From Rhodamnia argentea (lineage: Eukaryota; Streptophyta; Magnoliopsida; Myrtales; Myrtaceae), in assembly GCF_020921035.1 (NCBI RefSeq), contig NC_063160.1, positions 21,735,595 through 21,799,594 of the forward strand: 64,000 bases of DNA, read 5' to 3'. Position 1 is the stretch's first letter. Each line of letters starts with the position of its first letter. The position numbers and the translations under genes are program-made. The notes beneath the pieces are model-generated. The model was given only the letters and a program-made list of their open reading frames with translations. It was not told the origin of the DNA and made no database searches. Of the stretch, positions 3,678 to 29,750 are shown piece after piece.

Positions 3678-5567
3678 CTATATACGAGGATTTCTTAGCT
3701 TCCTGCAATTGTAGCTCATTAATCTCAGTCGCTGCCTGGCCGCTAACTCGGCCAGTACTGTATTCCTCGAGAAGTTCAATACCTTGCCATTGCTTTGTTG
3801 GATGGATCGCACCATATAAGATGTACTTACCAGCTCAAATGCTCTCCATCTTCTCTCTTTGGCATAATTCCGCAAACCCTTCTCAATCCTCTTGAGCTTA
3901 TCCTCCTCTTCTATACCCTTTCCTTCAATTCTCACAGCTTGCCTATCTCTCAAGGCTTCGCTAAGGCATCTTGCTAAGACGACGCCGTCTTCTAGGGCCG
4001 CGCAGCCTCCTTGGGCAATATCTGGTGTCGTGGGGTGCAATGCATCTCCAGCTACACAAACATTGCTTTTGCATATGTTCCCCCATAAAATCTCCCACGG
4101 GGTGTCTAAATCTCGGTCGAGATAACATCATGTTGTCCGGTTCCGTGTCATCTATAACAGCTTTTATGTTGTCGGCGACGTTTCCGAGCTTGCTTAGCAC
4201 AAATTGCTTCATCTTAGCCGGATTACCTATAATCTCTTCATCTACATCAAGGAAAATGGCACAAGTGCTTGAACAAAATATGCATATCGAAAAGGATTTA
4301 ATATATGTCGAGGCCGGTTCGTATCAGAGAAAACAAAGGATGAAGATTTGAGATAAGAACTGCATATTTGAAACTCACCCTGGCTGGAAGGAGAAGAACC
4401 AAAGAACCAGTATATTGTCTTATCATCGCAAGGAATGACACCATATCTGACTCCACCACCCACGAACAGGTAAAACTTGGGCTCAAGACCATGACCATTT
4501 TCGTAATAAACACAACCTCTGATGCCGAATCGGCCAGCAAAAGCAGGCTTGAAGCTTAACGATTTGGCCACTGCGGAGTTCACTCCATCACACCCAATCA
4601 ACACCTAGCATGTACAAACAGAGTATATGCATAAAGATTAGTTAAAACCATAATACAACCTCAAGTTTCGAAACCCAAGAGAAGTTTTCAGTAGAGAAAA
4701 GTTGCTCCTCTCGAGCATTAATTCTAACTGTCATACTAAGCAAATTTTACTAATCAATGGCAGGTTACAATGTGGTACCTTTGCCTTGAGAACAGAACCA
4801 TCAGAAAGATGAATAAGCTTGAGGTAACCTGATTCCTCGATTGAAACCACCTTGGAAGAAAATCTAATAGTGCCACTTGGAAGTTCTTTCTCAAGAGTTG
4901 CCAACAAGATCTTCCTCTGCACACCACGAAATTCGTTGTCTCTCCTGCAATACACAGAGACCAGATTACATAAGGAAATAGAGTGTGTTCTTCTTTCCGG
5001 AAAAGATACAAGGAGAACATCCGGTGAATTGACTGGCCAATTTCGAATATAAGCGACTTAACTGCAGCCCCACGGCACTCAATGGTATCTCTGCTATACA
5101 AAGTCCAGAAATTGTGGAAGAGGTCATTACCCTGCAACCAAAACCTCTAACACGTCAACTAAAATAACAGGCGCAGAGATATGAAAAAAAGAACTTTATG
5201 GTACCAATTTCAAATAAACGTCTTCCACATTGCTACTACTCGAGAAGGGAGTTTATTAGTCACCTGAGAAGTCGATTGTGCTGCCGACGGAACGATTCGC
5301 CAACTCCCAGTGCGTCCAAGGCTGTCCAACCGTTCGTCCATATTCCTAACGCAAACCCTGTGGTCCTCAAATGGTCATGCGACTCCAAAACCAGGCTCCT
5401 TATGCCTAGCCTGCAACACACAGCATTACCAATAATAGAGACAATTAAACAAACACGTAGAGGGTAACTACTCTCAGTGGCTTCAAGTACAAACCTATGA
5501 AGTCCCAAACTGTGGCAAGTCCTGATATGCCAGCTCCGACAATGACTATGTCCTCAGCCGCTTTCAT
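3678..5567 (-). pseudogene. beta1: FAD monooxygenase pseudogene
   Basis: Six exons align with the paralogues: 5495-5567, 5264-5410, 5063-5131, 4779-4944, 4379-4604 and 3678-4241. FAD-family motifs remain recognisable (LIGCDG in exon 5, CVAGDALHP in exon 6). Exon 1 is 73 nt instead of 74: one base is missing near 5510, which moves the frame off the conserved GLATALGL sequence. Exon 6 has one base too many near 4100-4110, which shifts the frame just before the expected PWEILWGN stretch. An intact version would end SYNCRKLRNPRI, nine residues longer than gamma and without a membrane helix. Both lesions are absent from beta2 and beta3. At least one lies in a short homopolymer, so an assembly error cannot be fully excluded. 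Confidence 0.82.
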
Positions 5568-6267
5568 GACAGTCTGACTGGAGATTGATGTCTTGTGCCT
5601 GAAAAGTGTTGGAAGTGCTATTGCAGCGAAAGTGGATCTTGACCTTTGTAATTGAACCGGGAGCTATAGAAATTGATAGAGAAATAAAACAAGCACTAAT
5701 GAAAGGACACGATAAGATTCGATTCGAATGTCGAAACTTACATATGCGGGAAAAGCTAATAATAATTCATTAATAATCGGAGAATTACAGAGTTTATAGT
5801 CACTCACACTCAAGTGTTTCCCAACACCAGATTATACCCAATAACCATGGTATTTAACTACTCAACTCGACGGGTTCAACTCTAAGCACAAGTCTCTCCG
5901 AGCTCTAGACTCTCTTTGTCTCTTGAGCTCTTTCTGAACTTTGCCACCACCTTCACTTTTATAGGAGGAGAGAGGAACTTTATGACAAAAGGAAGGTCAA
6001 GCATGCGCCCGTAATCTTTGAAAACAATCCGAACCGGCGTCCGGTTTCAATGTCTTGTCCATGTGGATGAGTGAAGCAAAATGGACGTTGCTCCTGACAT
6101 GCACCAACGAAGGAAGAGAGTAAAAGTCCAAGAGTGCATGCTTCCCTTCATTAACAATTCACATATATATATATATAGGGCAACAAAGGATGACGAAAAA
6201 ATGATGACGTTCGGCGCCCACATACGTGCATGCATTCACGATGAAGAGGAAAAATGGACGTGGAGAC
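5568..6267. promoter_or_regulatory. Upstream region of beta1
   Basis: About 700 bp of non-coding DNA upstream of the beta1 start, repeated upstream of beta2 (15,695-16,403) and beta3 (29,751-30,452). A TATA-like stretch (tatatatatata) lies near 6165-6177 and is replaced by a longer CA/TA microsatellite in block 2. No promoter element could be assigned with confidence, and the gene it would drive is dead. Confidence 0.35.
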
Positions 6268-7625
6268 TGTTAGAGAAATGTGTATATTTAGGAGATTGTG
6301 TATATTTCTTTGATTCATTGTGTATTGATTATAATTGACATTTTGCTAGGTTTTAGCTATTTTATGAAGCCTGTAAATACGCTCATGTACTCTTCACTTC
6401 AAAATAGATAGAATGTTATATTTCTCTGTTACTATTGTTCTCAACTTGGTATTGGAGCCATTATTGTCTTAAAAGCGGTTCCTTTGGAGTCGGTGGCTGT
6501 GCAATGTTCTGACGGGGGGAACGGTGTTCATTTTTTGCCGAACCCGCCGATCTTGAGCACGTTGTTACGATTAATTTGGTTGCTTGTTTCCACAAAACCA
6601 ACCCACCCACCTGTCTCTCCCCCCGCAGAACAGACAATTATCAAAATTTCGCTGCCACCCACCGGCGTACGCACTCCCAAGCGCTGCCCTCCGTCACTGC
6701 AAGGAAGGGTCACGAGCCTCTAGGAGAGCCAACCTCGTTTGGTGTTGCTCCGGCACCACCTACCTTTTCGGCCGACGGCGAGTCCAATCTAGAAATAGCC
6801 GTCGCACTCAATACACGCGCCGCTTATATATCTCACTGTTACTCGAGATGACATTGCTTATGTTATTCGTGTTGTTAGTCAATGCATGATTGCTCCTCGT
6901 ACAACTCACTTTGCTACGGTTCTTCGAATTCTTAGCTACATTGAGGGTACTTTATTTCACGGCCTTCATTTTTCTGCTAAATCTACATTTGAGTTGACAG
7001 CTTATTATGACGTTAATTGAATTGGTGACTCTCAAGATCGTTGCTCTGCTATGGGTTACTGTTTCTTTTTGGGCACCTCATTTACCTCATGGCATAGCAA
7101 GAAGTAGACAACTATCGCTTGCTCTAATACAGAAGTAAAATATCGAGCTCTTACTAATATCACATCAGAGTTACTATGATTATGATGGCTACTAAAAGAA
7201 ATGGGAGTATGTCAACACAGTGAAACAGTCATTCATTGCGGCAACCGAAGTGCTATTCAAATAGCACATAATGATACCTTCCACGTGAACCAAGCATATT
7301 GAAATAGACTGTCACTTCATTCGATGTCACACTTTTCATGGCACTGTTCGACTTGTTCCACTTCATCCCATCCACCTAGGCATTTTCAGGTTCTTTTCTC
7401 CTAACTCAAGTTGATATCTTATAGATCACCTTGAGTTTGAGGGACCTATTAGAGATATAGATATATTTATGAGATTTTGTATATTTCTCTAGTTGATTGT
7501 GCATTGATTCTGATTGATAATTTGCTTGGTTTTAGCTATCCTTTAAAGCCTATAAATAGGTTCATGTACCCTTTATTGGAAAATAGATAGAATCTTATAT
7601 TTCTCTGTCACTATTGTTCTCAACT
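6268..7625 (+). mobile_element. Ty1/copia LTR retrotransposon remnant, block 1 copy
   Basis: Two direct repeats of about 179 bp (6268-6446 and 7447-7625) act as LTRs and are flanked by a 5-bp duplication, GAGAC, at 6263-6267 and 7626-7630. A primer-binding-like site, TTGGTATTGGAGCC, follows the left LTR, which is the usual tRNA-Met-type site of plant copia elements. The interior is short and retains only a piece resembling the end of copia reverse transcriptase and RNase H, in plus orientation. Most of gag and pol is missing, so this is an old, broken copy. The same insertion, in a shorter form, lies at 16,404-17,224 and 30,453-31,254, so it predates the block amplification. Confidence 0.85.
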
Positions 7626-8881
7626 GAGACATGCCATAAATCCAGGTGCAGAAGACTTACGTGCAGCCAAAGGAACAGTGCCATTTCTTTGGTCTTCTCA
7701 TGCAGCGCATTTAATTCCTCACGTATTTGATAAATAGCGGATTGGATTTCGTATACGTGCTCAAATTCGAGACATGATTTAACAAAAAATTATCTGCGAC
7801 AGGGGTTTCAAATGGTAATTCCACTCCAGCCAGAAACATAAAGCACATAAAGGTAAGGGGCGAAGACGATTTATCGGGGGTGACCAGTAAATTATGCAAG
7901 ATACGACGCCCAAGAAAAGGTGCTGCATGCAAGGACAAACAAAAAGTGAACGCCAACACGATTACCAAAAAAAAAAAAAAAAAGAGACACAAATTGAAGC
8001 GAAAAGGGTTCAATTATTGTATTGAGCAGGAAAGTGACATTCAAAAGAACAAACGAGATATAGTCCTCCTTACACTTCCAGCAAAATAAGCACAACATCT
8101 AAGTCTGGTCCCTTTTTTTTTTTTTCAAGTTCTAAGCATGAAAATATTTAATTAAAGAGGCAAATAAAGTTAGAAAGACTTAAAATTAAAATCTCATATT
8201 ATTGAAATACACATTTGAGTTGTGTTAAAAAAATTTCACATCGATGAATTGGTGCGTATAGAGCAGTTAATATATCACCGATGGCTCATAACTCGTTGAC
8301 CTAAACATTGATTGAAGATAAATCTAACCGAATATGTTAACAGGCTCGAATTTGAACTTTTTCTTAGCGATATCCTCCATGTGAATGTAGTCGAAAGCCT
8401 GCGCATCAAAGGATGAAACAGCCCCCATGCTTTCGATTTAGTAGTCTCAACAATTTCACTACCTGCCTCGTATACAACTCCTCGAATATATTTTCACAAG
8501 ATGTTGTTCCAGAGTACTCACAGGACAAAGTGAAGAAACTGTTCCCTTCCTTTGAGGACACAATGAAATTTTACTCGATCATTCTCCTCACATGAAAAGC
8601 GATGTTCTGCAGTAAAGAAATGCATGTCGCCTAAATGAAGACAACGATGGCACGTTGTCATTCCTTAAAATCCCAGAAACCGTACATAAAAGTGCCCTTA
8701 TTAGTCCCTCGCTTCACAAGATCTTTTGCTGTAAGCTCCAATTACATGGGATGTCTCCGCATAGACAGGAACCCCTTCTCTGATGCTTGAGATGCGAAGC
8801 AAACCAATCACAACTTAACCATCTACCCTTACATATAAATGCCCGCACACAACACATTGATAAGTAAACAAACAGGATGAG
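7626..8881. other. Copia-gamma1 intergenic region
   Basis: Non-coding 3' flank of gamma1, near-identical to 17,225-18,357 and 31,255-32,398. It holds short A/T homopolymers near 7969-7983 and 8111-8124. No exon or RNA gene was recognised. The part nearest the stop codon (about 8600-8881) is the most conserved between blocks and probably includes the gamma1 3' UTR. Confidence 0.5.
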
Positions 8882-11299
8882 TCAAGAAGCGCTCAGCTTC
8901 CCGCAATCGAAACTCGCCATCTTCAGCAGCTGCCCGGCCAAGAAGGCGGTCAGTACTCTGTCCCTCAAGAAGTTCAATACCTTGCCCTTGCTCTGTTGGA
9001 TGTATCCCACCATGTAAGATGTGCTTATGAGCCCAAATGCTCTCCATCTTCTCTCTTTGGCATAACTCTGCAAGCCCATCTCAATCCTCCTGTGCTCTTC
9101 TTCACTGCTCATGCCTTGCCTGTCCCTCAAGGCTTTGCCTAGGCATCTCGCTAGAACGACGCCATCTTCTAGAGCTGAACAGCCTCCCTGGCCAACATCT
9201 GGGGTCATCGGGTGGAATGCGTCTCCGGCTACACAGACATTGGTTTTGCTTATGTTTCCCCATAGAATCTCCCATGGGGGTCGAAATCTCAGCGGTGACA
9301 GTATAATGTTATGCAGTTCTGTTTTCTCAATAACAGCTCTCACATTGTCCGGTACTTTTCCAAGCTTGCCCAGCACGAATTGCTTCATCTTGGCCGGACT
9401 CTCTTCCATCTCTTCATCTGCATTCAGCAAAGTGACATTGTTTGCTTGTAGATAATATGAAAAGCAGAGAATTTAATTGTTGCCAAAAGCCAACTCATAC
9501 CGAATCAAGTACAGAAACTTACGCTTGCTAGAAGAAGAAAAAGTGAAGAACCAAGAAACAGTCTTGTCATCGCAAGGGATGACACCATATCTAACTCCTT
9601 CACCAAAGTACTGGAAGAATTTAGGCTCGAAACTGTGACCGTGCTCGTAATATGCGCAGCCCCTGAAGGCAGATCGGCCAGCAAAAGCAGGCTTCTTGAA
9701 GCCCAGCCATTTTGCCACTGCTGAGTTCACTCCATCACACCCAATTAAGACCTAGCATTTTGACATAGAGCATAAGCATAAAGATACGTTAAACCATAGA
9801 TATCCTGTTCAGACAAGCAGGTAAATTTTGCATAGACAAAGGGGCTTCTATCGAGCATAAAGTATCTCTCCCGCACTCTAAGCCAGTTTTCCTAATTGAT
9901 GGTTATTATGTGATGCAATACCTTCGCCTTGAGAAGTGACCCATCAGAAAGCTGGACCAGCTTAAGGTAGCTGGATTCCTCGATCGACACAACCTTAGAC
10001 AAATACCTTATAGTGCCGCTAGGAAGTTCATTCGCAAGAGTTTCCAACAAGGTTCTCCTCTGCAAGCAACGGACTTCATTGTCTCGTCTGCAATAGACGC
10101 ACGAAGTTAAATTGGTATGTCATGCATAACAAAGGAAATTAGGAATCCATTGAAGTTTGCACAAGAAATGAGAGGAATGGATCTGGTTTATTTGAAAGGC
10201 CAATTTTGCATGCAATTTTAAGCCCCGTAGATTTTCACGAATTTAAATGACTTAACTGTGTCTCTGTGGCATCAAATTGTCTCTCAGCTGTAGAAAGTCC
10301 AGAAATTGTGGAAGTGGCCTGCAACCTGAAGCAGAACCTCTCAGATATCAATTCAAATCAGGCACAAAGCCATGACAACAAGAACTAGCTTTTGAATTAA
10401 CATCATGGCAAATATCTTTTCCATCTAGTGTTGATGGATCTATGTTGCATCTCAGATGTCATGCAAAGGTGCTCTCTCAAAATCAGGATGTGTCTAATCC
10501 CTCTCCTATTGCATTCCTTCTTGAAAACCCCAACAAATGGCGAACTCTCTAGATGAAAACAACACCGTCCACGGACACTTGTACTTCTGGGAACACAATG
10601 CTTGGAAATCATTCTCGACGATAACAAGCTCAAATTCTAATGGACGATCAGTATAAACCATTCCATCATCATGTGAGAATGTTTCTCCATGATCATTCCA
10701 AATTAGAATGACGTGTCCGCCCTTACCCTCGATGAAATTGGAATTATCAAAACAATAGGTGGTCAAGTAAACCGGTAGGCCTAGCTAATCACTAGAAAAG
10801 CTCATGTCTTTGTTTGTGGGCTGAATTTTGTGTAGCACTATACATTCAAATTGCAATTGGAATGATCAAATCACAGTAGTCCTAAGAATTAGCCACAGCA
10901 AATGGAGGAGGATTTCCATCAGTTACCCAAAAAGTTGGCTGTGCTGTGGGCGGAGCGGTTCGCCGATCCCGACCGCGTCCAAGGCCCGCCAAGCATTTGT
11001 CCATGTTGTAAAGGCGAATCCTGTGTTTCTCAACCCATGAGACGACTCCAGAACCAAGCTTCTAATGCCAAGCCTGCAACACACAAAATATTATCAGCAC
11101 CCACTCGAATATCAGACACATACGAACAAACATAAGGCGGGTGAGAATGAGAACAGAGCAGAAGAAGAAAATTTCAGAGAACAACTCATTTCAAGTTGTA
11201 GCTGCTCCAATTCCAGTACAATCACCTGTGAAGTCCTAAGGCTGTAGTGAGGCCTGCTATTCCAGCACCAACAATCACTATGTCTTCGACTGCTTCCAT
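8882..11299 (-). CDS. gamma1: FAD-dependent monooxygenase (MO1-like), intact
   Basis: Exons 11226-11299, 10927-11073, 10257-10325, 9922-10087, 9523-9751 and 8882-9417 sum to 1,221 nt, giving 406 aa plus stop, with GT-AG introns throughout. The N-terminal FAD dinucleotide fold has G11-x-G13-xx-G16 (VIVGAGIAG). The DG motif is at about D158-G159 (IGCDG) and the GD motif at G293-D294 (VAGDAFHP), followed by the helix [16 protein letters not shown]. These are the three signatures of group A flavoprotein hydroxylases. The protein ends FDCGKLSAS with no transmembrane segment, so a soluble enzyme is expected. Intron 2 is about 600 bp and carries an unexplained reading frame. The 5' UTR contains a CT/GA repeat and a TATA box lies about 60-65 bp upstream of the ATG. 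The substrate cannot be read from sequence. Confidence 0.9.
10506..10766 (-). other. Unrecognised reading frame inside gamma1 intron 2
   Basis: An 86-codon open stretch on the gene's own strand lies wholly within intron 2 of gamma1. It shares [21 protein letters not shown] and [13 protein letters not shown] with frames at the same place in gamma2 and gamma3. Alpha and beta genes lack it; their intron 2 is only about 130-230 bp. I do not recognise the family. It could be a captured exon, part of an old insertion, or chance conservation because the copies are young. Confidence 0.3.
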
Positions 11300-11356
11300 G
11301 AAACAACAGCTTGATCTCTCTCTCTCCCTGTGTCTCTCTCTCTCGGGTGAGGTCTC

Positions 11357-11454: not shown

Positions 11455-11544
11455 CTACGTATATTTGGTCTGGCAAATAGTAACTAGTGAATGTCGAAAT
11501 GTGTGCGCTGTGTCCGTAGCACTTGTTCTTCATCTATTAGTTAC

Positions 11545-11913
11545 CTGAGAAGTCGGTTGTGCTGCCGACGGAGCGATTCGCCAACCCCCACTGCGTCCAA
11601 GGCTTTCCAACCATTTGTCCATATTCCCAGCGCAAACCCCGTGGTCCTCAAATGGTCATGCGACTCCAAAACCAAGCTTCTTATGCCTAGCCTGCAACAC
11701 ACAGCATTCTTAGTTAGAGAGGCAAATAAACAAACACGTAGAGGCCGTAAAAGATGAGTAAGAAACTTCCGAGCGAACTACTCCTAGTTTTGACCAAAAA
11801 AAAAAAAAAAATTACTCCTAGTTGCTTCAAGTCCAAAACCTATGAAGTCCTAAAGCTGTGGCAAGTCCTGCTATGCCAGCTCCAACGATCACTATGTACT
11901 CAACTGCTTCCAT
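11545..11913 (-). pseudogene. alpha2: two-exon remnant of an alpha monooxygenase
   Basis: Only exon 1 (11840-11913) and exon 2 (11545-11691) of an alpha-class gene remain. Both are intact, start with ATG and carry the FAD-binding N-terminus and the [11 protein letters not shown] stretch. Sequence identity to alpha1 stops a few bases beyond the exon 2 donor, at about 11,540. There it joins directly to the far-upstream flank of gamma1, which in block 2 (about 23,420) and block 3 (about 35,060) continues for another 0.8-1 kb. One deletion therefore removed alpha2 exons 3-6 plus the distal gamma1 upstream DNA. Its own upstream region is still present. At most it could give a short FAD-fold fragment. 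Confidence 0.85.
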
Positions 11914-13803: not shown

Positions 13804-15694
13804 CTATATACGAGGATTTGTTAGCTTCCAGCAATCGTAGCTCGCTAATCTCAGTCGCTGCCTGGCCGCTAACTCAGCCAGTACAGTATTCCTCGAGAAG
13901 TTCAATACCTTGCCATTGCTTTGTTGGATGGATCGCACCATATAAGCTGTACTTACCAGCTCAAATGCTCTCCATCTTCTCTCTTTGGCATAATTCCGCA
14001 AACCCATCTCAATCCTCTTGAGCTCATCCTCCTCTTCTATACCCTTTCCTTCAATTCTCACGGCTTGCCTATCTCTCAAGTTTTCGCCCAGGCATCTTGT
14101 TAAGACGACGCCATCTTCTAGGGCCGCGCAGCCTCCTTGGGCAATATCTGGTGTCATGGGGTGCAATGCATCTCCAGCTACACAAACATTGCTTTTGCAT
14201 ATGTTCCCCCATAAAATCTCCCACGGTTGTCTTAATCTCGGTCGAGATAACATCATGTTGTCCAGTTCCGTGTCATCTATAACAGCTTTTATGTTGTCTG
14301 CGACGTTTCCGAGCTTGCTTAGCACAAATTGCTTCATCTTAGCCGGATTACCTATAATCTCTTCATCTACATCAAGGAAAATGGCACAAGTGCTTGAACA
14401 AAATATGCATAACCAAAAGGATTTAATATATGTCGAGGCCGGTTCGTATCAGAGAAAACAAAGGATGAAGATTTGAGATAAGAATTGCATATTTGAAACT
14501 CACCCTGGCTGGAAGGAGAAGAACCGAAGAACCAGTATATTGTCTTATCATTGCAAGGACTGACACCATATGTGACTCCACCACCCCACGAACAGGTAAA
14601 ACTTGGGCTCAAGACCATGACCATTTTCCTAATAAACACAACCTCTGATGCCAAATCGGCCAGCAAAAGCAAGCTTGAAGCCTAACGATTTGGCCACTGC
14701 GGAGTTCACTCCATCACACCCAATCAACAACTAGCATGAACAAACAGAGTAAAAGCATAAAGATCAGTTAAAACCATAATACAACCTCAAGTTTCGAAAC
14801 CCAAGAGAAGTTTTCAGTAGAGAAAAGTTGCTCCTCTCGAGCATTAATTCTAACTGTCATACTAAGCAAATTTTACTAATCAATGGCAGGTTACAATGTG
14901 GTACCTTTGCCTTGAGAACAGAACATCAGAAAGATGAATAAGCTTGAGGTAACCTGATTCCTCGATCGAAACCACCTTGGAAGAAAATCTAATAGTGCCA
15001 CTTGGAAGTTCTTTCTCAAGAGTCCCCAACAAGATCTTCCTCTGCACACCACGAAATTCGTGGTCTCTCCTGCAATACACAGAGAGCAGATTTCATAAGG
15101 AAATAGAGTATGTTCTTCTTTTCAGAAAAGATACAAGGAGAACATCCGGTAAATTGACTAGCCAATTTTGAATATAAGCGACTTAACTGCGGTCCCACGG
15201 CACTCAACGGTATCTCTGCTGTACAAAGTCCAGAAATTGTGGAAGAGGTCATTACCCTGCAACCAAAACCTCTAACATGTCAACTAAAATAACAGGCGCA
15301 GAGATATGAAAAACAAGAACTTTATGGTACCGTTTTCAAATAAACGTCTTCCACATTGCTACAGCTAGAGAAGAGAGTTTATTAGTCACCTGAGAAGTCG
15401 GTTGTGCTGCCGACGGAGCGATTCGCCAACCCCTAGTGCGTCCAAGGCTGTCCAACCGTTCGTCCATATTCCTAACGCAAACCCTGTGGTCCTCAAATGG
15501 TCATGGGACTCCAAAACCAGGCTCCTTATGCCTAGCCTGCAACACACAACATTACCAATAATAGAGACAATTAAGCAAACAAGTAGAGGGTAACTACTCT
15601 CAGTGGCTTCAAGTACAAACCTATAAAGTCCCAAAGCTGTGGCAAGTCCGGATATGCCAGATCCGACAATGACTATGTCCTCAGCTGCTTCCAT
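13804..15694 (-). pseudogene. beta2: FAD monooxygenase pseudogene
   Basis: Exons 15621-15694, 15390-15536, 15188-15256, 14905-15069, 14504-14730 and 13804-14366. Exons 1 and 2 are open ([16 protein letters not shown], then [12 protein letters not shown]). Exon 4 is 165 nt instead of 166: one C is missing near 14,923, so the frame leaves [10 protein letters not shown]. Exon 5 is 227 nt instead of 226: one extra C lies in the CCCC run near 14,584. Exon 6 is fully open, with [13 protein letters not shown] and end SYDCWKLTNPRI. The two frameshifts are about 340 bp apart and different from those of beta1 and beta3. Both are single-base changes, so reads over 14,584 and 14,923 would settle whether they are real. 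Confidence 0.8.
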
Positions 15695-16403: not shown

Positions 16404-17224
16404 TGTTAGAGAAATGTGTATATTTAGGAGATTGTGTATATTTCTTTGATTGATTGTGTATTGATTATAATTGACATTTTGCCAAAAATAGCACCGCCAA
16501 ACTCCGTTGCACTCAATACACGCGTCGCTTATATATCTCACTATTACTCGACATGACATTGCTTATGTTGTTCGTGTTGTTAGTCAATGCATGATTGTGC
16601 CTCGTACAACTCACTTTGCTGCGGTTCTTTGAATTCTTCGCTACATTAAGAGTACTTTATTTCATGGCCTTCATTTTTCTACTAAGTCTACATTGGAGTT
16701 GACAGCTTGTTTTGATGTTAATTGAATTGGTGACCCTCAAGATCGTCGCTTTATTATGGGTTATTGTTTCTTTTTGGGCACCTCATTTATCTCATAGCAT
16801 AGCAAGAAGCAGACAACTGTCCCTCCCTCTAGTACATAAGCAGAATATCAAGCTCTTGCTGATACGACATCAGAGTTACTTTGGTTACGATGGCTACTAG
16901 AAGAAATGAGAGTATGTCAACACAATGGAATAGTCATTCATTGCGGCAGCACATAATGATGCCTTCCACACGAATCAAGCACAATGAAATAGACTGTTAC
17001 TTCATTCGATGTCATGTTCTTCGTGGCACTATTCGACTTGTTTCCACTTCATCCCATCCACCTGGGCATTTTCGGGTTCTTTTCTCCAAACTCAAGTTCA
17101 TATCATATAAATCATCTTGAGTTTGAGGGGGTTATTAGATATATATTTATATATATATATATATATATATAGGACATTTTGTATATTTCTCTAATTGATT
17201 GGGTATTGATTCTGATTGACATTA
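16404..17224 (+). mobile_element. Ty1/copia remnant, block 2 copy
   Basis: Same insertion as 6268-7625, entered through the same GAGAC flank, but in a shorter form that it shares with the block 3 copy at 30,453-31,254. It keeps part of each LTR and the RNase H-like piece, and is broken. A TA microsatellite has grown at about 17,142-17,171 in the right part. Confidence 0.75.
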
Positions 17225-18357: not shown

Positions 18358-20782
18358 TCAAGAAGCGCTCAGCTTCCCGCAATCGAAACTCGCTATCTTC
18401 AGCAGCTGCCCGGCCAAGAAGGCAGCCAGTACTCTGTCCCTCAAGAAGTTCAATACCTTGCCATTGCTCTGTTGGATGTATCCCACCATGTAAGCTGTGC
18501 TTATTAGCCCAAATGCTCTCCATCTTCTCTCTTTGGCATAACTCTGCAAGCCCATCTCAATCCTCCTGTGCTCTTCTTCACTGCTCATGCCTTGCCTGTC
18601 CCTCAAGGCTTCGCCTAGGCATCTCGCTAGAACGACGCCATCTTCTAGAGCCGAACAGCCTCCCTGGCCGACATCTGGGGTCATGGGGTGGAATGCATCT
18701 CCGGCTACACAGACATTGGTTTTGCTTATGTTTCCCCACAGTATCTCCCATGGGGGTCGAAGTCTCTGTGGTGACAGTATAATGTTATCCAGTTCTGTTT
18801 TCTCAATAACAGCTCTCACATTGTCCGGTACTTTTCCAAGCTTGCCCAGCACGAATTGCTTCATCTTGGCCGGACTCTCTTCCATCTCTTCATCTGGATT
18901 GGGCAAAGTGACATTGTTTGCTTGTAGATAATATGAAAGGCGGAGTAAGAGAATCTAAAAGTTGCCAAAAGCCAACTCATATCGAATAAAGTACAGAAAC
19001 TCACTCTTGCTGGAAGAAGAAAAAGTGAAGAACCAATAGATAGACTTGTTATCGCAAGGGACGACACCAGATCTAACTCCTTTACCAAAGTACTGGAAGA
19101 ATTTAGGCTCGAAACTGTGACCGTGCTTGTAATATGCGCAGCCCCTGATGGAAGATCGGCCAACAAAAGCAGGCTTCTTGAAGCCCAGCCATTTTGCCAC
19201 TGCTGAGTTCACTCCATCACACCCAATTAAGACCTAGCATTTTGACATAGAGCATAAGCATAAAGATAAGTTCAACCATAGATATCTTGTTCAGACAAGC
19301 AGGTAAATTTTGCATACACAAAGGGGCTTCTATCGAGCATAAAGTATCTCTCCAGCACTCTAAGCCAGTTTTCCTCATTGATGGTTATTATGTGATGCAA
19401 TACCTTCGCCTTGAGAAGTGACCCATCAGAAAGATGGACCAGCTTAAGGTAGCCTGATTCCTCGATCGACACAACCTTAGACGAATACCTTATAGTGCCG
19501 CTCGGAAGTTCATTCGCAAGAGTTTCCAACAAGGTTCTCCTCTGCAAGCAACGGATTTCATGGCCTCGTCTGCAATAGACGCACGAAGTTAAACTGGTAT
19601 GTCATGCATAAGAAAGGAAATTAGGAATCCATTGAAGTTTGCACAAGAAATGAGAGGAATGGATCTGGTTTATTTGAAAGGCTAATTTCGCATGCAATTT
19701 TAAGCCCCGTAAATTTTCACGAATTTAAATGACTTAACTGTGTCTCTGTGGCATCAAATTGTCTCTCAGCTGTAGAAAGTCCAGAAATTGTGGAAGTGGC
19801 CTGCAACCTGAAGCAGAACCTCTCAGATATCAATTCAAATCAGGCACAAAGCCATTACAACAAGAACTAGCTTTTGAATTAACATCATGGCAAATATCTT
19901 TTTCCATCCGGAGTTGATGGATCTATGTTGCATATCAGATGTCATGCAAAGGTGCTCCCTCAAAATCAGGATGTGTCTAATCGCTCTCCTATTGCATTCC
20001 TTCTTGAAAACCCCAACAAATGGCGAACTCTCTAGATGAAAACATCACCGTCCACGGACACTTGTACTTCTGGGAACACAACACTTGGAAATCATTCTCG
20101 ACGATAACAAGCTCAAATTCTAACGGACAATCAGTATAAACCAATCCATGATCATGTGAGAATGTTTCTCCATGATCATTCCAAATTAGAATGACTTGTC
20201 CGTGCTTACCCTCGATGAAATTGGAATTATCAAAACAATAGGTGGTCAAGTAAACCGGTAGGCCAAGCCAATCACTAGAAAAGCTCATGTCTTTATTTGT
20301 GGGCTGAATTTTGTGTAGCACTATACATTCAAATTGCAATTGGAATGATCGAATCACAGTAGTCCTAAGAATTAGCCACAGCAAATGGAGGAGGATTTTC
20401 ATCAGTTACCCAAAAAGTTGGCTGTGCTGTGGGCGGAGCGGTTCGCCGATCCCGACCGCGTCCAAGGCCCGCCAAGCGTTCGTCCATGTTGTAAAGGCGA
20501 ACCCTGTGGTTCTCAACCCATGGGACGACTCCAGAACCAAGCTTCTAATGCCAAGCCTGCAACACACAAAATATTATCCGCACCCACTCGAAAATCAGAG
20601 ACATACGAACAAACATAAGGCGGGTGAGATTGAGAACAGAGCAGGACAAGAAAATTTCAGAGAACAACTCATTTCAAGTTGTAGCTGCTCCAATTCCAGT
20701 ACAATCACCTGTGAAGTCCTAAGGCCGTAGTGAGGCCTGCTATGCCCGCACCAACAATCACTATGTCTTCAACTGCTTCCAT
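18358..20782 (-). CDS. gamma2: FAD-dependent monooxygenase (MO1-like), intact coding sequence, disrupted promoter
   Basis: Exons 20709-20782, 20410-20556, 19739-19807, 19404-19569, 19005-19233 and 18358-18893 sum to 1,221 nt (406 aa). All splice borders are GT-AG and identical in phase to gamma1. The GAGIAG, IGCDG and VAGDAFHP signatures are complete. It differs from gamma1 and gamma3 at scattered residues only, for example a Lys in YYKHGHSFE and VVPCDNK in exon 5. A 2.4-kb solo LTR sits 115 bp upstream of the ATG, between the TATA box and the TGACG-type element, so expression may differ from its sisters although the protein should be functional. Confidence 0.9.
19989..20402 (-). other. Unrecognised reading frame inside gamma2 intron 2
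   Basis: The longest form of the intron 2 frame: 137 codons on the gene's strand, inside the intron 19,808-20,409. It includes [20 protein letters not shown] and ends [10 protein letters not shown]. It has no clear signal peptide or membrane helix apart from a hydrophobic start. I do not recognise it. Confidence 0.3.
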
Positions 20783-20834
20783 GAAACAACAGCTTGATCT
20801 CTGTCTCTCTGTCTCTGTCTCTCGGGTGAGGCCT

Positions 20835-20896: not shown

Positions 20897-23293
20897 TGTG
20901 ACGCCCTCAAAATTAGACCCTCTGTACGAAGACCGAGTTCAATAAAAAGAATTTTTATTGAATTCCAGTTGGTGTAAATTTCGGATCGCAATGGCGTAAG
21001 TGACAAATTTTTGAACGATTCCGAAATATCATTCGATTTGCATTAGGTTCTAAAAATCGTAGTTGTCGCACTTTAGGATTTTTAATCCTCACGCCTAAGC
21101 TTAGTCCAGACCGAGCCTAGCCAGCAAAAACCAATTCTATTATCAATCAGTTGAGTCAAAAATTCATTTAGTCCTGATTTATCAATTGACCCTTTTACCC
21201 CTCAATAACACACAAGAAGACAATTTTTTTAATATCCCACGTAGTGGGCTCCACTTGTCTCCCTCACCTCTCTAATCTCCCACCAACCCATCCCATCACC
21301 TTTCCCCCCTTCTTTCACGTCATTTCAGTGAGTTAAACCTCTAAATCCCGACTAGGGTGTTAATTGCGTTCAGTAATAGTTAATTAGCGTAGTTAGCAAC
21401 GTATGGTGTTTAGGTAGATTAATTGTGGTTGGATTAGATAGAAATTCGGTTTAAGATAAATGACCACAATTATTTAAGGTAGTCGAACTAGTTAGATCGT
21501 ATGTGGTTAATTGGTGAGTAGATTGGACTGATTATTTAGACGGTGATTGCTGGTATTTGATCGCAGCGAGCGAGCGATAGGTCAAAGTTGATCATGAGCG
21601 AGCGATAGGTCAGAGTCGAGCGTGCAACTATTAATTGGTTGAAATTGGGTTAATAATTATTGTTGGGATTATTAATTGTGTTTAATTAATACGCGGTGAT
21701 TGAATGTTTGACTAGAGGCTTGATGTTGATTGTTGCTTGTTGCGTGAGCAGTTTTGAGTGTCAGGCATCTTATTTCATATATAAAGCCTTATGGATAATA
21801 TTGTGCATTCATATGACCACATGCGGAATTAAATTGCATATTGTAGCATAAAAATGACCGTGGGACCGAGTGTTCGAGCACGTCCGCATGAGCATTCGGC
21901 TAAAAGTAAAAGGTAAAAATTATTTGGTTGTTGGATGTGCACGAGTGGTAGTGGTACGGGAACCTAACAAGTTCGCACCGTGCCGGTCATGCGGAACCAC
22001 ACTACTTGTCAGAAGCACGTCAATTCGTGCATGTGCCGGTCGTACGGATCGCACGAATTGTCGGATGCCGGTCGCAGCTTGTGACGGGATGAAACTCCTT
22101 TTGGAATGCCTATCTGCTATGCCGTGTCGGTTGCATCGGATACATAGCTTTTAGTCGCCGAGTAAAGGACAATGCCTGCTCCTACCAGTAGACACCGTCA
22201 ATCGTAGTATTGGGGCCACACCGGTCGTGTGCGCCGACCACGCCAGCCGCGTGGGTCACCAATTAATAATTGGACTTTGTGTGGTGTCCTACGCATACAA
22301 ATTGATATGATGTCGTGCCCGTTGATTGTCCGATGTGACTCTTGAGTTGAGTCGAGCATTGCATTGTGCATGGCTGAAAACCGGCAAGTTTGCATGTGGT
22401 TGACCGTTATACGTATGATGCTTTTATGGTTGCATGGTAGGATTTGGGAAAAGTACAACTAGAAGTGCCATAACTTTTGTACGGCGTTTACTTAAGTGTC
22501 ATAACTTTCAAAACGTTCACTTAAGTGCCATAATTTTCAAAAATCGTTCACTTGAGTGCCATAATTTTCAAAAATCGTTCACTTGAGTGCCATGTTGACG
22601 TGGCAGCCGGAAAAAGCGACGTGGTAGCTGAAAAGCTGACGTGGCACGCCGGAAAAGTTATCGTAAACGTCGGAAAGCCGACGTGGCATGTTAGAAAAGT
22701 TACCGTAGCCCTCAAGTGAACGATTTTGCTCCGACGTGGCACTTAAGTCAACGATTTTTGAAAGTTATGGCACTCAAGTGAATGCCGTACACAAGTTATG
22801 GCACTTTAGTGTACTTTTCCCGTAGGATTTTCTGAGCAAATCAACGTTTTAACTGGGCTTAGGCGTTGACTTACTGAAATTCATATCTCATCCCGTCATT
22901 ATTATCCCTTTTTTAGGCCCTTAGTCTTGAAGAGCTGGAAGTGGCATGGACCTTATTGGAGTAGTTTGGAAGTCGTGTTAATCTCGACCTAATACCTCGG
23001 AAAGTGGTAGAAAGTGGCCCGAAGAATGGGCTTGTAGATACTTCGCTTCCCTGGGTTAACAAAGACAATTAAACAAAAGGTGGACTTTGCTAACCTGTCA
23101 TGATTTGATCGTTGCGATTGTCTGTTTTAACTATCCATCCCTGTTGTGCGATTTAATGTTTGGGAGTTGCACGTTCCGCATGCGAAATAAAAGATTAAAA
23201 TAAAAAGGGGTCGATAACGTGCCTGGGACGTTATTCTTTATGACCCGAGGCGATTTGGTAAGGATGTCACGGGCTGAGGATCGGGGTGTGACA
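20897..23293. mobile_element. Solo LTR, probably Ty3/gypsy, in gamma2 promoter
   Basis: A 2,397-bp segment starting TGTGACGCCCTC and ending GGGGTGTGACA (TG...CA ends) interrupts sequence that is continuous at gamma1 and gamma3. It is flanked by a 5-bp target duplication (gtctg/gactg, one mismatch). There is no primer-binding site, coding region or second LTR, so it is a solo LTR left by recombination. The size and TGTGACG start resemble long LTRs of plant Ty3/gypsy (Tekay-like) elements; this family call is an inference. It is absent from blocks 1 and 3, so it is younger than the amplification. A MITE is nested at 22,446-22,821. Confidence 0.8.
22446..22821. mobile_element. MULE-type MITE nested in the solo LTR
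   Basis: 376 bp with inverted ends: GGGAAAAGTACA at the left and its complement TGTACTTTTCCC at the right. Subterminal units (AAGTGCCATAACTT) are repeated in both arms. It is flanked by a perfect 9-bp duplication GTAGGATTT at 22,437-22,445 and 22,822-22,830. Nine-bp duplications are diagnostic of Mutator-like elements. It has no coding capacity. The ends match those of the larger MULE at 48,828-54,819. Confidence 0.88.
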
Positions 23294-24452: not shown

Positions 24453-26346
24453 TTACATGCACAGACACAAACGTTCCCTTATTTTCCTTTGCATGGGAAG
24501 AAGATAAACACTCGCTATGTAACCTGAAAAGGCAATAGCAATATATGTCACTAAGGTCTGAATTGAAGGAGTTCTTAGCATCCCGCAATCGTAGCTCCCT
24601 ATTCTCGGCAGCTGACCCGCCAGGAACCCGGCCAGTACTTTCTCCCTCAAGAAGTTCAATATCTTACCATTGCTTTGTAGCATGTATCCCGCCATATAAG
24701 CTGTAGTTATGAGCTGAAACGCTCTCCATCTTCTCTCTTTGGCATAATTGCGCAAACTCATCTCAATCCTCTTGTACTCCTGCTCCTCTTCTATACCCTT
24801 TGCTTCACTTCTCATGATTTGCATATCTCTCAAGGCTTCACCCAGGCATCTTGCTAAGACGATGCCATCTTCTAGGGCCGCACAGCCTCCTTGGGCAATA
24901 TCTGATGTCATGGGGTGGAATGCATCTCCAGCTACACAAACATTGCGTTTGCTTATGTTTCCCCATAAAATCTCCCATGGATGTCTAAATCTCAGTGGAG
25001 ATAACACCATGTTATCCAAATCCGTGTCATCTATAACAGCTTTTATGTTGTCAGCGACTTTTCCGAGCTTGCTTAGCACAAATTGCTTTATCTTAGGCGG
25101 ATTGTCTATGATCTCTTCATCTACATCAAGGAAAATGGCAGAATTGCTTGAACAAAATATGCATACCAGTCGAAAAGGATTTAATATATGTCGATGCCGT
25201 CGGAAAAAAAAAGAAGAAGATGAAAAGTCGATCTTCAAAGGAAAAACTGCTTATTGAAACTCACCGTGGCTGGAAGGAGAAAAACTGAAGAACCAGTAGA
25301 TAGTCTTATCATCGCAAGGAATGACGCCACATCTAACTCCTGCGCCCATGAACTGGAAAATTTTGGGCTCAAGATCATGACCATTTTCATAATATACACA
25401 GGCCCTAATGCCGAATCGGCCAACAAAAGCAGGCATCTTGAATCCTAACGATTTGGCCCCTGCGGAGTTCACTCCATCGCACCCAATCAACAGCTAGCAT
25501 GTACAAACAGAGCATAAGCATAACGATCAGTCGTAACCATATACAACCTTAAGCTTCGAAACACGAGCAGTAGATAAAAGGTGGGTGCTCCTCTCAAGCA
25601 TTAATTCTAATTGTCATTGTAAGCAAATTTTCCTAATCAATGGTCGATTACAAATCGATACCTTCACCTTGAGAATATAACCATCAGAAAGATGAATAAG
25701 CTTGAGGTAACCTGATTCCTCGATTGAAACCACCTTGGAAGAAAATTTAATAGTGCCACTTGGAAGTTCTTTCTCGAGTTTCCAACAAGATCTTCCTCTG
25801 CACACAACGGAATTCATGGTCTCTCCTGCAATACACAGACCAGATTACATAAGGAAATGAAATAATGTTCTTCTTTCCACAAAAGATACAAAGAGTACAT
25901 CTGGTAAATTGACTGGCTGATTTCAAATATAAACGGCTTAACTGCGGCCCCATCGCACTTAATGGTATCTCTGCTGTACGAAGTCCAGAAATTGTGGAAG
26001 AGGTCATCACCCTACAACCGAAATCTCTAACATGTCAATTAAAACAACAGGCACAGATATATGAATAACAAAAGAACTTTATGGTACCTATGTCCCATGT
26101 AAGTCATCACTTCATCACCTCCTCTTTTTGCGGGTTCGGGTGCAGCGCATATCTCGCTATTGAATCTATTAAAATTGACTGCAATACGTCATCCACATTG
26201 TTACATCCAGAGAAGGGGAGTTTCTTAGTTACCTGAGAAGTCGGTTGTGCTGCCGACGGAGCGATTCGCCAACCCCCACTGCGTCCAAGGCTTTCCAACC
26301 ATTTGTCCATATTCCCAGCGCAAACCCCGTGGTCCTCAAATGGTCA
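24453..26346 (-). pseudogene. alpha3: FAD monooxygenase pseudogene lacking exon 1
   Basis: Exons 6 to 3 are present (24453-25120, 25265-25493, 25662-25825, 25943-26011), followed by about 114 nt of exon 2 (26233-26346). Exon 2 then joins directly to DNA that in blocks 1 and 2 lies about 485 bp further upstream, so exon 1, the start codon and the proximal promoter are gone. The junction has a 4-bp microhomology, GTCA. Exon 4 is also 2 nt short near 25,775, a frameshift. Exon 6 is open and shows the alpha C-terminus: after SYDCGMLRTPS comes a hydrophobic segment (LVTYIAIAFSGYIASVYLLP) and a basic tail, absent from beta and gamma. Confidence 0.88.
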
Positions 26347-27859
26347 GTCCGATTATGGGATAAGCTATTTTAGTGCATCAAGTGGACAGCTCTCACAACA
26401 AGCCCGACCAAGCCAAGGGTCTCCTCCAAAGATGCGGCATCATGAAAGCAAAAGCGGTCCTTGCCTTCCAAATGCAAGCATTCGAGAGGAACTTCTCCAA
26501 AAGCTTTCTGCAGCGCCATTGGCCTTCCCTACTTGCAGAAGCCAAAGTAAATTTACCTTGGACTTTGCACCTTAATCGAGCAGCAAAGCGACATTCAAAG
26601 AACAAACGAGACCGAATTCGGAGGTATTGGTCTTCTTCTATTTACGAGCGCACGTGTGTTCCTCGTGTGGTTTCGGAATTTGTACGTTCCAAGTATTGTT
26701 TTCATATATTTTGACTTGCTTTTCATTTAGCGTTCTCATGTAATGGCGTGGCGTTCTTGTCCAGACAAAGTGTGTCGTTCTTTGTTATTCGACATTAACT
26801 TTATATATTTCAGGATGATCACACAAGTTGTTCATGAACTTTAGTTCAATGTATAACGTCGTCTCCGAGTTTTTAATTTGTTCAATGTAGTCCATGAACA
26901 TTAGTTCACTGTGCAATGTCGTCAACGTACTTTTTAATTATTTACTGTGGTCTATGAGCTTTTGGTAAATGCTCTATATAGTCTCTCGACTATGTGGAGA
27001 CATCCAATATCGTTTTTTCATTATTTCAAGTTAACAAAATTTATCGTTTTGGCTTTCGATTCAGTAAGATTGGATGGTGGATGAAAAAATAACGTTAAAC
27101 GTAAGATATTTAACTGAAGTCATGATATAATAACACATGCCATCAATAATCATCTTTCCAAATTGAACCAAAAAAAAATAGACAGATTAAAGGTATTATT
27201 GTACTTGAATTTGAGTTGTATCCACGTGTAACTTTTCTTTTGTTCACCGTTTAAAAGTACCATGTTGGAAGCCAAGTCACTAAGTTTCAGTAATTTGAAT
27301 TAACATAAAGATAATATTGAATATTTTTATATAATTCAGGGACTAAATTGAAGATATACCAAAAATTCAGGAACTATATCAAACACGTACCAAAAGTTCA
27401 TAAATTCAGGTACCGTTAGTATTATTATCCCTATGTTTTAAGCATAACCTTTTAGCTCTCTGTCTTACATTTGTTTCGGCTTTATGGCGTCAATTTTCGC
27501 CTAGGCACCACGTGGCATCTTTTTTTTTTTTTGTCTAACACGTGGCGTCTATTTATTGAGCTAAAAATTACAATTATTTCCTTTCATTTGTGAATGGAAA
27601 AGACAAACATGACCTGAGTATCTTTCTCCTTAAGAATGCAATAAAGAAACAAGAAATATGACGATTGTCCAGCAGACCTAGTGCTCAATAAGATACTCAA
27701 CACATATATCTCCAAAGAAGCAGATTAAATCACTCCCATACGAGGACAAGATTCTGCTGCAGTCAAAGTGACATTGAAGTTCATGCATTCATCATGTAAC
27801 CTGAAAATGCAACAGCAACATATGGGGATGTTGTGGGGAGGGGGGGGTTGGACCAAGGT
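26347..27859. other. alpha3-beta3 intergenic region
   Basis: Counterpart of the distal part of 1784-3677, entered through the deletion junction at 26,346. No coding exon was recognised. It contains the block 3 MITE-like copy. A G-run (about 27,836-27,848) lies close to the beta3 stop codon. Confidence 0.55.
26813..27431. mobile_element. MITE-like inverted-repeat element, block 3 copy
   Basis: Same insertion as 2515-3153 and 12,644-13,306, with tandem ACTTTAGTTCAATG-type units in the left arm and an eroded right arm. Non-coding. Confidence 0.55.
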
Positions 27860-29750
27860 CTATATACGAGGATATGTTAGCTTCCCGCAATCATAGCTCG
27901 TTAATCTCAGTCGCTGCCTGGCCGCTAACTCGGCCAGTACTGTATTCCTCGAGAAGTTCAATACCTTTCCATTGCTTTGTTGGATGGATCGCACCATATA
28001 AGCTGTACTTACCAGCTCAAATGCTCTCCATCTTCTCTAATTGGCATAATTCCGCAAACCCATCTCCATCGTCTTGAGCTCATCGTCCTCTTCTATACCC
28101 TTTCCTTCACTTCTCACGGCTTGCCTATCTCTCAAGGCTTCGCCCAGGCATCTTGCTAAGACGACGCCGTCTTCTAGGGCGGCGCAGCCTCCTTGGGCAA
28201 TATCTGGTGTCATGGGGTGCAATGCATCTCCAGCTACACAAACATTGTTTTTGCATATGTTCCCCCATAAAATCTCCTACGGGTGACTAAATCTCCATCG
28301 AGATAACATCATGTTGTCCAATTCTGTGTCATCTATAACAGCTTTTATGTTGTCTGCGACGTTTCTGAGCTTGCTTAGCACAAATTGCTTCATCTTAGCC
28401 GGATTACCTATAATCTCTTCATCTACATCAAGGAAAATGGCACAAGTGCTTGAACAAAATATGCATATCAAAAAGGATTTAATATATGTCGAGGCCGGTT
28501 CATATCAGAGAAAACAAAGGATGAAGATTTGAGATAAGAACTGCATATTTGAAACTCACCCTGGCTGGAAGGAGAAGAACCGAAGAACCAGTATATTGTC
28601 TTATCATCGCAAGGAATGACACCATATCTGACTCCACCACCCACGAACAGGTAAAACTTGGGCTCAAGACCATGACCATTTTCGTAATAAACACAACCTC
28701 TGATGCCAAATCGGCTAGCAAAAGCAGGCTTGAAGCCTAACAATTTGGCCACTGCGGAGTTCACTCCATCACACCCAATCAACAACTACCATGAACAAAC
28801 AGAGTATAAGCATAAAGATCAATAAAAACCATAATACAACCTCAAGTTTCGAAATCCGAGAGAAGTTTTCGGTAGAGAAAAGTTGCTCCTCTCGAGCATT
28901 AATCCTAACTGTCATACTAAGCAAATTTTACTAATCAATGGCGGGTTACAATGTGGTACCTTTGCCTTGAGAACAGAACCATCACAAAGATGAATAAGCT
29001 TGAGGTAACCTGATTCCTCGATCGAAACCACCTTGGAAGAAAATCTAATAGTGCCACTTGGAAGTCCTTTCTCAAGAGTCCCCAACAAGATCTTCCTCTG
29101 CACACCATGAAATTCGTGGTCTCTCCTGCAATACACAGAGACCAGATTACATAAGGAAATAGAGTATGTTCTTCTTTCCGGAAAAGATACAAGGAGAACA
29201 TCCGGCAAATTGACTGGCCAATTTCGAATATAAACGACTTAACTGCGGCCCACGGCACTTAACGGTATCTCTGCTTTACAAAGTCCAGAAATTGTGGAAG
29301 AGGTCATTACCCTGCAACCAAAACCTCTAACATGTCAACTAAAATAACAGGCACAGAGATATGAAAAACAAGAACTTTATGGTACCGTTTTCAAATATAA
29401 ACGTCTTCCACATTGCTACAGCTAGAGAAGGGAGTTTCTTAGTCACCTGAGAAGTCGGTTGTGCTGCCGACGGAGCGATTCGCCAACCCCCAGTGCATCC
29501 AAGGCTGTCTAGCCGTTCGTCCATATTCCGAACGCGAACCCTGGTCCTGAAATGGTCATGCGACTCCAAAACTAGGCTCCTTATGCCTAGCCTGCAACAC
29601 ACTGCATTACCAATAATTAGAGACAATTAAACAAACACGTAGAGGGTAACTACTCTCAGTGGCTTCAAGTACAAACCTATAAAGTCCCAAAGCTGTGGCA
29701 AGTCCTGATATGCCAGCTCCAACAATGACTATGTCCTCAACTGCTTCCAC
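27860..29750 (-). pseudogene. beta3: FAD monooxygenase pseudogene
   Basis: Exons 29677-29750, 29447-29591, 29244-29311, 28960-29125, 28560-28785 and 27860-28422. It is the most damaged beta copy. The start codon is GTG where the others have ATG (29,748-29,750). Exon 2 is 2 nt short near 29,541, exon 3 is 1 nt short near 29,250, and exon 6 has two stops: TAG in place of the Trp of PWEILWGN near 28,277, and TAG in the AKERRWRAF stretch near 28,039. Exons 4 and 5 are open. None of these lesions is shared with beta1 or beta2. Confidence 0.88.

What the first reader, a model, noticed from the sequence alone, without database searches (positions are those of the whole stretch)
3678..29750. Alpha and beta copies decayed independently while every gamma copy stayed intact
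The three beta genes carry no shared lesion: beta1 is hit in exons 1 and 6, beta2 in exons 4 and 5, beta3 at the start codon and in exons 2, 3 and 6. Beta was therefore intact when the block multiplied and then died three separate times. Alpha2 and alpha3 were cut by two different deletions. All four gamma frames are exactly 1,221 nt and open. This contrast suggests selection for gamma dosage with alpha and beta relaxed.
Basis: partly seen in the sequence, partly recalled or inferred. Interest (0 to 1): 0.75.

Follow-up and report, generated by a model that had tools for sequence, protein, structure and literature searches.

The report
Plant monooxygenase array: unequal copy survival
A plant chromosome carries ten neighbouring copies of one oxidising-enzyme gene, made by copying a three-gene block; one kind survived in every block, one kind died in every block and one kind survived once, which is ordinary turnover of duplicated genes with some unexpected detail in the survivors.

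Summary
Three beta copies carry eleven coding lesions, none shared; alpha2 and alpha3 are truncated differently; four gamma frames are 1,221 nt and open.

In a neutral simulation gamma1-3 all stayed open in 0 of 4000 runs (0.4% without indels), so gamma is selected. Beta nonsense changes match the neutral expectation (4 seen, 3.8 expected). But dN/dS does not separate gamma (0.54) from beta (0.68; p=0.51). Gamma1 (0.85) and gamma3 (0.71) are indistinguishable from neutral; gamma2 (0.33) and gamma4 (0.39) are constrained. Alpha is not simply relaxed: alpha1, completed beyond the window edge, is a full 413-aa frame (0.22). At copy level the contrast is weak (p=0.14).

Dosage is not shown. Gamma1's 5' flank is cut about 240 bp above its ATG by the alpha2 junction, gamma2 has a 2.4-kb LTR-like repeat 115 bp above its ATG, and gamma1 has serine at a conserved tyrosine. 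Gamma exons 4-5 lost amino-acid constraint while the rest kept it (post hoc split), which points to divergence or local relaxation rather than dosage. This is birth-and-death evolution of a FAD monooxygenase array.

The parts
1..1783 (-). alpha1: intact 6-exon gene (exons 1783-1710, 1595-1449, 1227-1159, 1041-876, 707-479, 334-1); the last 223 bp of exon 6 lie left of the window (L009); 1,242 nt, 413 aa
3678..5567 (-). beta1 pseudogene: 1-base loss in exon 1 (after 5510), 1-base gain in exon 6 (4102-4105)
8882..11299 (-). gamma1: open 1,221 nt; exons 11299-11226, 11073-10927, 10325-10257, 10087-9922, 9751-9523, 9417-8882; serine at residue 218 where the other copies have tyrosine
11537..11541 (.). 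junction of gamma1 5' flank and alpha2 intron 2, about 240 bp above the gamma1 ATG
11545..11913 (-). alpha2 fragment: exons 1-2 only (11913-11840, 11691-11545), open, own upstream region kept
13804..15694 (-). beta2 pseudogene: 1-base loss in exon 4 (14925/14924), 1-base gain (14584-14587) and nonsense (14631-14629) in exon 5
18358..20782 (-). gamma2: open 1,221 nt; lowest omega of gamma1-3 (0.33)
20897..23293 (.). 2.4-kb repeat inserted 115 bp above the gamma2 ATG; TG...CA ends, imperfect 5-bp flanking repeat (GTCTG/GACTG), relatives in many places of the genome
24453..26346 (-). alpha3 pseudogene: exon 1 and first 33 nt of exon 2 deleted (about 480 bp, join at 26343-26346), 2-bp loss in exon 4 (25776/25775)
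27860..29750 (-). beta3 pseudogene: GTG start, 2-base loss and nonsense in exon 2, 1-base loss in exon 3, two nonsense codons in exon 6
32399..34817 (-). gamma3: open 1,221 nt, omega 0.71; 5' flank without the join or insert seen at gamma1 and gamma2
36129..38426 (-). gamma4: open 1,221 nt, outside the triplicated block, about 11% exon and 19% intron divergence from gamma1-3, omega 0.39

Best explanation
This is a tandem array of an FAD-dependent monooxygenase gene (MO1 type, recalled) evolving by birth and death. An alpha-beta-gamma block beside an older gamma4 was copied to three blocks in a short span (shown: intron divergence between copies is nearly the same in the three families, 0.039-0.046). 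After that beta was surplus in every block and decayed; its nonsense changes reached the neutral number (shown), loss of need is inferred. Alpha was kept once (alpha1) and lost twice by truncation. Gamma stayed open in every block because it is selected as a protein (shown for the set). Selection is uneven: gamma2 and gamma4 are constrained, while gamma1 and gamma3 tolerate amino-acid change. In gamma the loss of constraint sits in exons 4-5, which carry the residues aligned with an arginine and a tyrosine of HpxO (catalytic by recall), so divergence of substrate range, or local relaxation, is more likely than selection for copy number (inferred).
For: Block copies and joins. Similar intron divergence in alpha, beta and gamma. 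Polarised changes among three copies against a neutral expectation from noncoding columns: gamma S 25, N 33, nonsense 0 (expected 24.3, 61.2, 3.9); beta S 28, N 48, nonsense 4 (expected 23.9, 61.3, 3.8). Codon model: gamma tips 0.54, beta tips 0.68, alpha1 0.22, alpha3 0.64, remaining branches 0.31. Simulation. Exons 4-5 of gamma1-3: N 18, S 5 against N 15, S 20 elsewhere (Fisher 0.014; 0.007 with three-state sites included); in alpha1 against gamma the same exons are as constrained as the rest (0.17 against 0.20-0.22). Altered 5' flanks of gamma1 and gamma2.
Against: Few changes per copy, so omega values have wide error; 18 likelihood-ratio tests were not corrected, and the codon model was written here and not checked against another program. 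The exon 4-5 split was chosen after seeing the sites, and N there does not exceed the neutral share (p 0.25-0.33). Beta nonsynonymous changes are below neutral (48 against 61.3; ratio 0.67, p=0.059), so beta was not clearly neutral throughout. Zero truncations in gamma1 and gamma3 (P 0.004 for two named copies, 0.027 without indels) argues against calling them simply relaxed. alpha1 does not differ from gamma tips (p=0.20). No expression or read data.
Confidence: 0.7

Rival explanations
1. Selection for gamma dosage: more gamma enzyme was favoured, so all gamma copies were kept while alpha and beta were free to decay.
For: All four gamma frames open; neutral loss of at least one expected. Gamma omega below 1 as a group (p=0.022).
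Against: gamma1 and gamma3 are indistinguishable from neutral in omega, and gamma and beta do not differ; gamma1-3 differ by 20 to 27 nonsynonymous changes per pair; gamma1 has serine at the HpxO Tyr216 column; two of four 5' flanks are disrupted; alpha1 is also kept and constrained.
Confidence: 0.2
2. Functional divergence of the gamma copies: each copy was kept because its flavin/substrate half (exons 4-5) changed toward a different substrate, with the rest under purifying selection.
For: Exons 4-5 ratio 1.57 against 0.30 elsewhere in gamma1-3; elsewhere N is below neutral (15 of 35, p=0.0004); changes are at different residues in gamma1 and gamma2; no such split in alpha1 against gamma.
Against: 18 of 23 or 20 of 25 nonsynonymous does not exceed the neutral share (p 0.33 and 0.25), so it may be mere loss of constraint; post hoc; beta shows the same direction without significance (13:4 against 35:24, p=0.26); gamma3 shows none (1:1).
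Confidence: 0.35
3. gamma1 and gamma3 are on the way to becoming pseudogenes: function is carried by gamma2, gamma4 and alpha1, and lack of truncation in the other two is luck plus recent relaxation.
For: omega 0.85 and 0.71, not different from 1; gamma1 Ser218; gamma1 5' flank cut.
Against: Two named copies both open has P 0.004 if neutral throughout (0.027 without indels).
Confidence: 0.3
4. beta was silenced once before the block multiplied (for example in its control region), and the coding lesions only followed.
For: beta stem omega 0.59, near-significantly above background (p=0.053) and not different from 1 (p=0.105); one in-frame codon missing in all three beta copies.
Against: No shared disabling lesion; only a short silent period is compatible (last quarter of the stem neutral: P 0.13; last half: 0.02).
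Confidence: 0.25
5. The lesions are assembly errors.
For: The beta1 exon 6 and beta2 exon 5 gains and the beta2 exon 4 loss are in short runs of one base. Reads were not available.
Against: Each beta copy has a lesion of another kind; four are nonsense substitutions; gamma exons have no indel between copies.
Confidence: 0.03

Closest known systems
Arabidopsis MO1 (AT4G15760) type FAD-dependent monooxygenases of plants
   Same: gamma2 matches Pfam FAD_binding_3; MO1 is described as a monooxygenase that shares homology with salicylate-degrading enzymes and whose reaction is not known (passages of PMC2664814). That the window genes are of the MO1 kind is recalled: no plant protein set could be searched.
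   Different: No plant MO1 sequence was compared here; the alpha-beta-gamma block arrangement was not compared with other plants.
HpxO flavoprotein monooxygenase (PDB 3rp6/3rp8) and 6-hydroxynicotinate 3-monooxygenase (8uiq, 5eow)
   Same: Best solved relatives of gamma3 by sequence, E 1e-24 and 7e-21; Arg206 and Tyr218 of gamma align with chain positions 227 and 239 of 3rp6, which are HpxO Arg204 and Tyr216 by recalled numbering.
   Different: Distant; gamma1 has Ser218. Substrate of the plant enzyme unknown.
Birth-and-death evolution of tandem gene arrays
   Same: Block duplication, independent pseudogenes, partial copies at joins; tandem copies born partial or chimeric are described in PMC10762295 (passages).
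   Different: Family-specific fate within one block: one family lost in all blocks, one kept in all, one kept once.

Membership tests
Class A FAD monooxygenase (FAD_binding_3) | Pfam FAD_binding_3 match above the curated cut-off | tested here: met
   gamma2 protein only, 84 bits against a cut-off of 22; the other copies were not scanned with Pfam
Class A FAD monooxygenase (FAD_binding_3) | N-terminal GxGxxG and C-terminal GD motif (motif names recalled) | tested here: met
   GAGIAG and [10 protein letters not shown] in gamma1-4 and alpha1, read from the translations
Class A FAD monooxygenase (FAD_binding_3) | Active-site arginine and tyrosine as in HpxO (role recalled) | tested here: inconclusive
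   Present in gamma2-4 and alpha1; gamma1 has Ser218; in 17 tblastn matches to genomic paralogs the tyrosine column is Tyr 13, Phe 2, Ile 2
Class A FAD monooxygenase (FAD_binding_3) | Flavin-dependent oxygenation of a substrate | not testable with these tools
   no assay
Plant MO1 subfamily | Closer to MO1 than to other plant FAD monooxygenases | not testable with these tools
   no plant sequence collection at hand; recalled
Birth-and-death tandem array | Tandem block copies with some members lost independently | tested here: met
Gene kept for dosage | Clear purifying selection on every kept copy | tested here: not met
   gamma1 0.85 and gamma3 0.71, not different from 1; low power
Gene kept for dosage | All copies expressed and additive | not testable with these tools
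   no RNA data

The most novel reading that the evidence does not exclude
The broken alpha2 is not dead but is gamma1's new front end: its upstream region and its two open exons sit about 250 bp above gamma1 on the same strand with matching intron phases, so transcripts from the alpha2 promoter can splice into gamma1 and make alpha-gamma hybrid enzymes, while gamma1's and gamma2's own distal control regions were replaced; the gamma copies were thus kept for divergence in control and substrate range, not for dosage.
Probability: 0.12. Interest if true: 0.55.

Novelty: new member of a known kind. Interest (0 to 1): 0.36.

Why it matters
The array is a small natural replicate experiment: three gene families were copied together, at nearly the same time, in the same surroundings, and met three different fates. 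It shows that open frames alone overstate function, since dN/dS, control regions and an active-site residue tell a different story from the frame count. If the gamma copies have diverged in exons 4-5, the locus is a tractable case of enzyme divergence after tandem duplication in a family whose plant reaction was unknown in the one paper seen here (PMC2664814).

Tried and rejected
Gene conversion from gamma4, alpha or beta as the source of the gamma2 exon 4-5 changes: set aside by eye; gamma2 shares a few of these codons with gamma4 (for example 176, 207, 226, 229) but most match neither gamma4 nor, in the translations, alpha or beta. Lesion counts as a measure of selection: set aside, because lesions after the first are free, so copy survival was used. 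Identification of the plant: not possible; genome and contig sizes suggested to me a Myrtaceae species, and I looked up one candidate in the taxonomy, but nothing tests it. Paper searches for the family or such an array: (6, 10, 4, 0 and 10 rows listed; one search listed 10 of 56 papers); no listed row is such a case. I saw those listings, and passages of PMC2664814, PMC10762295, PMC8260726 and PMC9838390. The HpxO structure paper is not held, and the passages do not name Arg204 or Tyr216, so their roles and numbers are recalled. Exon ends of alpha and beta exons 2 and 5 were one base short and corrected; one search tested 14 of 33 for the gamma remainder, redone as 15 of 35.
Full report
What is there. 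The window is part of a 346.66-Mb genome of 74 contigs, C11:21735595-21799594. On the minus strand lie ten copies, one of them a two-exon fragment, of a six-exon gene for a FAD-dependent monooxygenase: gamma2 matches Pfam FAD_binding_3 with 84 bits against a cut-off of 22. In window order: alpha1, beta1, gamma1, alpha2, beta2, gamma2, alpha3, beta3, gamma3, gamma4. A DNA search of the own genome with gamma1 exon 6 gave 12 matches: the nine exon-6 copies of the array and three far weaker ones elsewhere on the same contig. A protein search with gamma2 gave 117 exon matches, with distant paralogs on C2, C5, C7, C9 and C11. No N is present in the window.

The lesions. beta1 has 2, beta2 has 3 and beta3 has 6 disabling changes (6 frameshifts, 4 nonsense, 1 start), none shared. 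alpha2 has exons 1-2 only and its intron 2 joins gamma1's 5' flank at 11537-11541; alpha3 lost about 480 bp with exon 1 and 33 nt of exon 2, and has a 2-bp loss in exon 4. alpha2's truncation may be the duplication join itself or a later deletion; the sequence does not decide. The alpha1 gene runs off the window; with the fetched flank (L009) it is complete, 1,242 nt and 413 aa without lesion, 223 bp of it outside. So one alpha survived.

The blocks. Alignments show alpha-beta-gamma repeated three times with gamma4 outside. Intron divergence between copies is much the same in all families: beta 0.039-0.043, gamma1-3 0.041-0.046, alpha1-alpha3 0.046, which fits one short period of block copying. 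Exon divergence is 0.039-0.052 in beta, 0.027-0.039 in gamma1-3 and 0.026 in alpha1-alpha3 (window part).

Selection. Changes unique to one of three copies were classified and compared with a neutral expectation built from noncoding columns of the same alignments. Gamma: 25 synonymous, 33 nonsynonymous, 0 nonsense (expected 24.3, 61.2, 3.9). Beta: 28, 48, 4 (expected 23.9, 61.3, 3.8). The ratio is 0.52 for gamma (p=0.012) and 0.67 for beta (p=0.059); the two do not differ (Fisher 0.48). So beta nonsense changes are at the neutral number while its nonsynonymous changes are somewhat below it. Tests: gamma tips against 1, p=0.022; beta tips against 1, p=0.10; gamma equals beta, p=0.51; alpha1 against 1, p=0.024; alpha3 against 1, p=0.44; beta tips equal background, p=0.003; gamma tips equal background, p=0.058; alpha1 equals gamma tips, p=0.20. 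With free tips: gamma1 0.85 (p=0.73 against 1), gamma2 0.33 (p=0.006), gamma3 0.71 (p=0.59), gamma4 0.39 (p=0.002), beta 0.65-0.72 (p 0.30-0.41). These 18 tests are not corrected for their number.

Chance. A simulation of neutral decay (substitutions by the noncoding spectrum, frameshifts by the intron indel rate, start and splice losses included) kept all three block gammas open in 0 of 4000 runs, also 0 of 4000 with the beta-exon frameshift rate, and 0.43% with indels switched off; two named copies both open has P 0.004, 0.0005 and 0.027 in the three settings. For beta it gives 7.8 lesions in three copies (95% 3-13), observed 11, and all three broken in 80% of runs. A wholly neutral beta stem would leave no shared lesion with P 0.0003; the last half neutral 0.02, the last quarter 0.13, the last tenth 0.44. 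So beta was intact at, or shortly before, the block copying. Independent coding lesions do not prove three separate deaths, since one earlier silencing could precede them. At copy level, 5 broken of 9 leaves some family wholly intact with P 0.14, so the contrast between families is itself not strong.

Gamma is not uniformly intact. gamma1's homology to gamma3's 5' flank stops about 240 bp above its ATG, where alpha2 begins. gamma2 has an insert of 2.4 kb, 115 bp above its ATG, with TG...CA ends and a 5-bp imperfect flanking repeat, a member of a repeated family (95 matches, from 40 scored of 3793 first-look candidates). A TATAAGA box about 60 bp above the ATG is kept in gamma1-3 and, as CATAAGA, in gamma4. 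Residue 218 is Tyr in gamma2-4, alpha1, alpha3 and the three beta copies but Ser in gamma1. It aligns with chain position 239 of PDB 3rp6, and Arg206 with position 227, where 3rp6 and 3rp8 differ; by recalled numbering these are HpxO Tyr216 and Arg204. In 17 tblastn matches to paralogs of this genome the tyrosine column is Tyr 13, Phe 2, Ile 2.

Where gamma changes. Exons 4-5 hold 18 nonsynonymous and 5 synonymous changes, the rest 15 and 20 (Fisher 0.014; with three-state sites 20:5 and 15:20, 0.007). The ratio to neutral is 1.57 in exons 4-5 and 0.30 elsewhere; elsewhere N is below neutral with p=0.0004, while in exons 4-5 it does not exceed neutral (p 0.33 and 0.25). gamma1 (8:1) and gamma2 (9:3) carry it, gamma3 (1:1) does not; gamma2 alone is significant (0.016), gamma1 is not (0.16). 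In alpha1 against gamma, with dS near 0.8, the same exons are as constrained as the rest (0.17 against 0.20-0.22); gamma against gamma4 is between (0.49 against 0.26-0.27). Beta shows 13:4 against 35:24, not significant. The split was chosen after seeing the sites. It fits either divergence or local loss of constraint; positive selection is not shown.

A bold reading. alpha2 keeps its upstream region and two open exons, ending 246 bp from gamma1's ATG on the same strand; its exons have the same phases as in gamma1, and the three joins of alpha2 exons to gamma1 exons that were tried give one open frame with only the final stop. Read-through and splicing would give an alpha-gamma hybrid. No RNA was available.

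Verdict. Observation confirmed with additions; interpretation partly supported: gamma is selected, beta decayed after the copying, but alpha survived once, gamma and beta do not differ in dN/dS, and dosage is not shown. An ordinary kind of tandem-array turnover with some unusual detail.

Noticed in passing
20897-23293: 2.4-kb LTR-like repeat with TG...CA ends inserted 115 bp above gamma2's ATG; related stretches in many places of the genome.
   Followed up: partly
11537-11541 and 35062-35066: The gamma1/alpha2 join falls within a few bases of where gamma3-gamma4 5' homology ends (35062/38674), a coincidence that may mark a recurrent breakpoint.
   Followed up: partly
6799-7517, 16504-17219, 30553-31252: Decayed retrotransposon-like stretch between beta and gamma in all three blocks, so older than the block copying (kind judged by eye).
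   Followed up: no
L010-L012, L021-L025, L034-L036 (C11:1.83-2.08 Mb): A second, larger cluster of distant paralogs of the same enzyme on the same contig, plus clusters on C2 and C5.
   Followed up: partly
24453-25120 and L009: alpha1, alpha3 and beta end at different C-terminal stops; alpha3 reads on into a hydrophobic tail that alpha1 and beta lack.
   Followed up: no
47012-47647 and 56073-56612: Two long minus-strand frames right of the array, one Arg/Ser-rich and resembling a splicing factor by eye; neither matches Pfam at E 0.001.
   Followed up: partly
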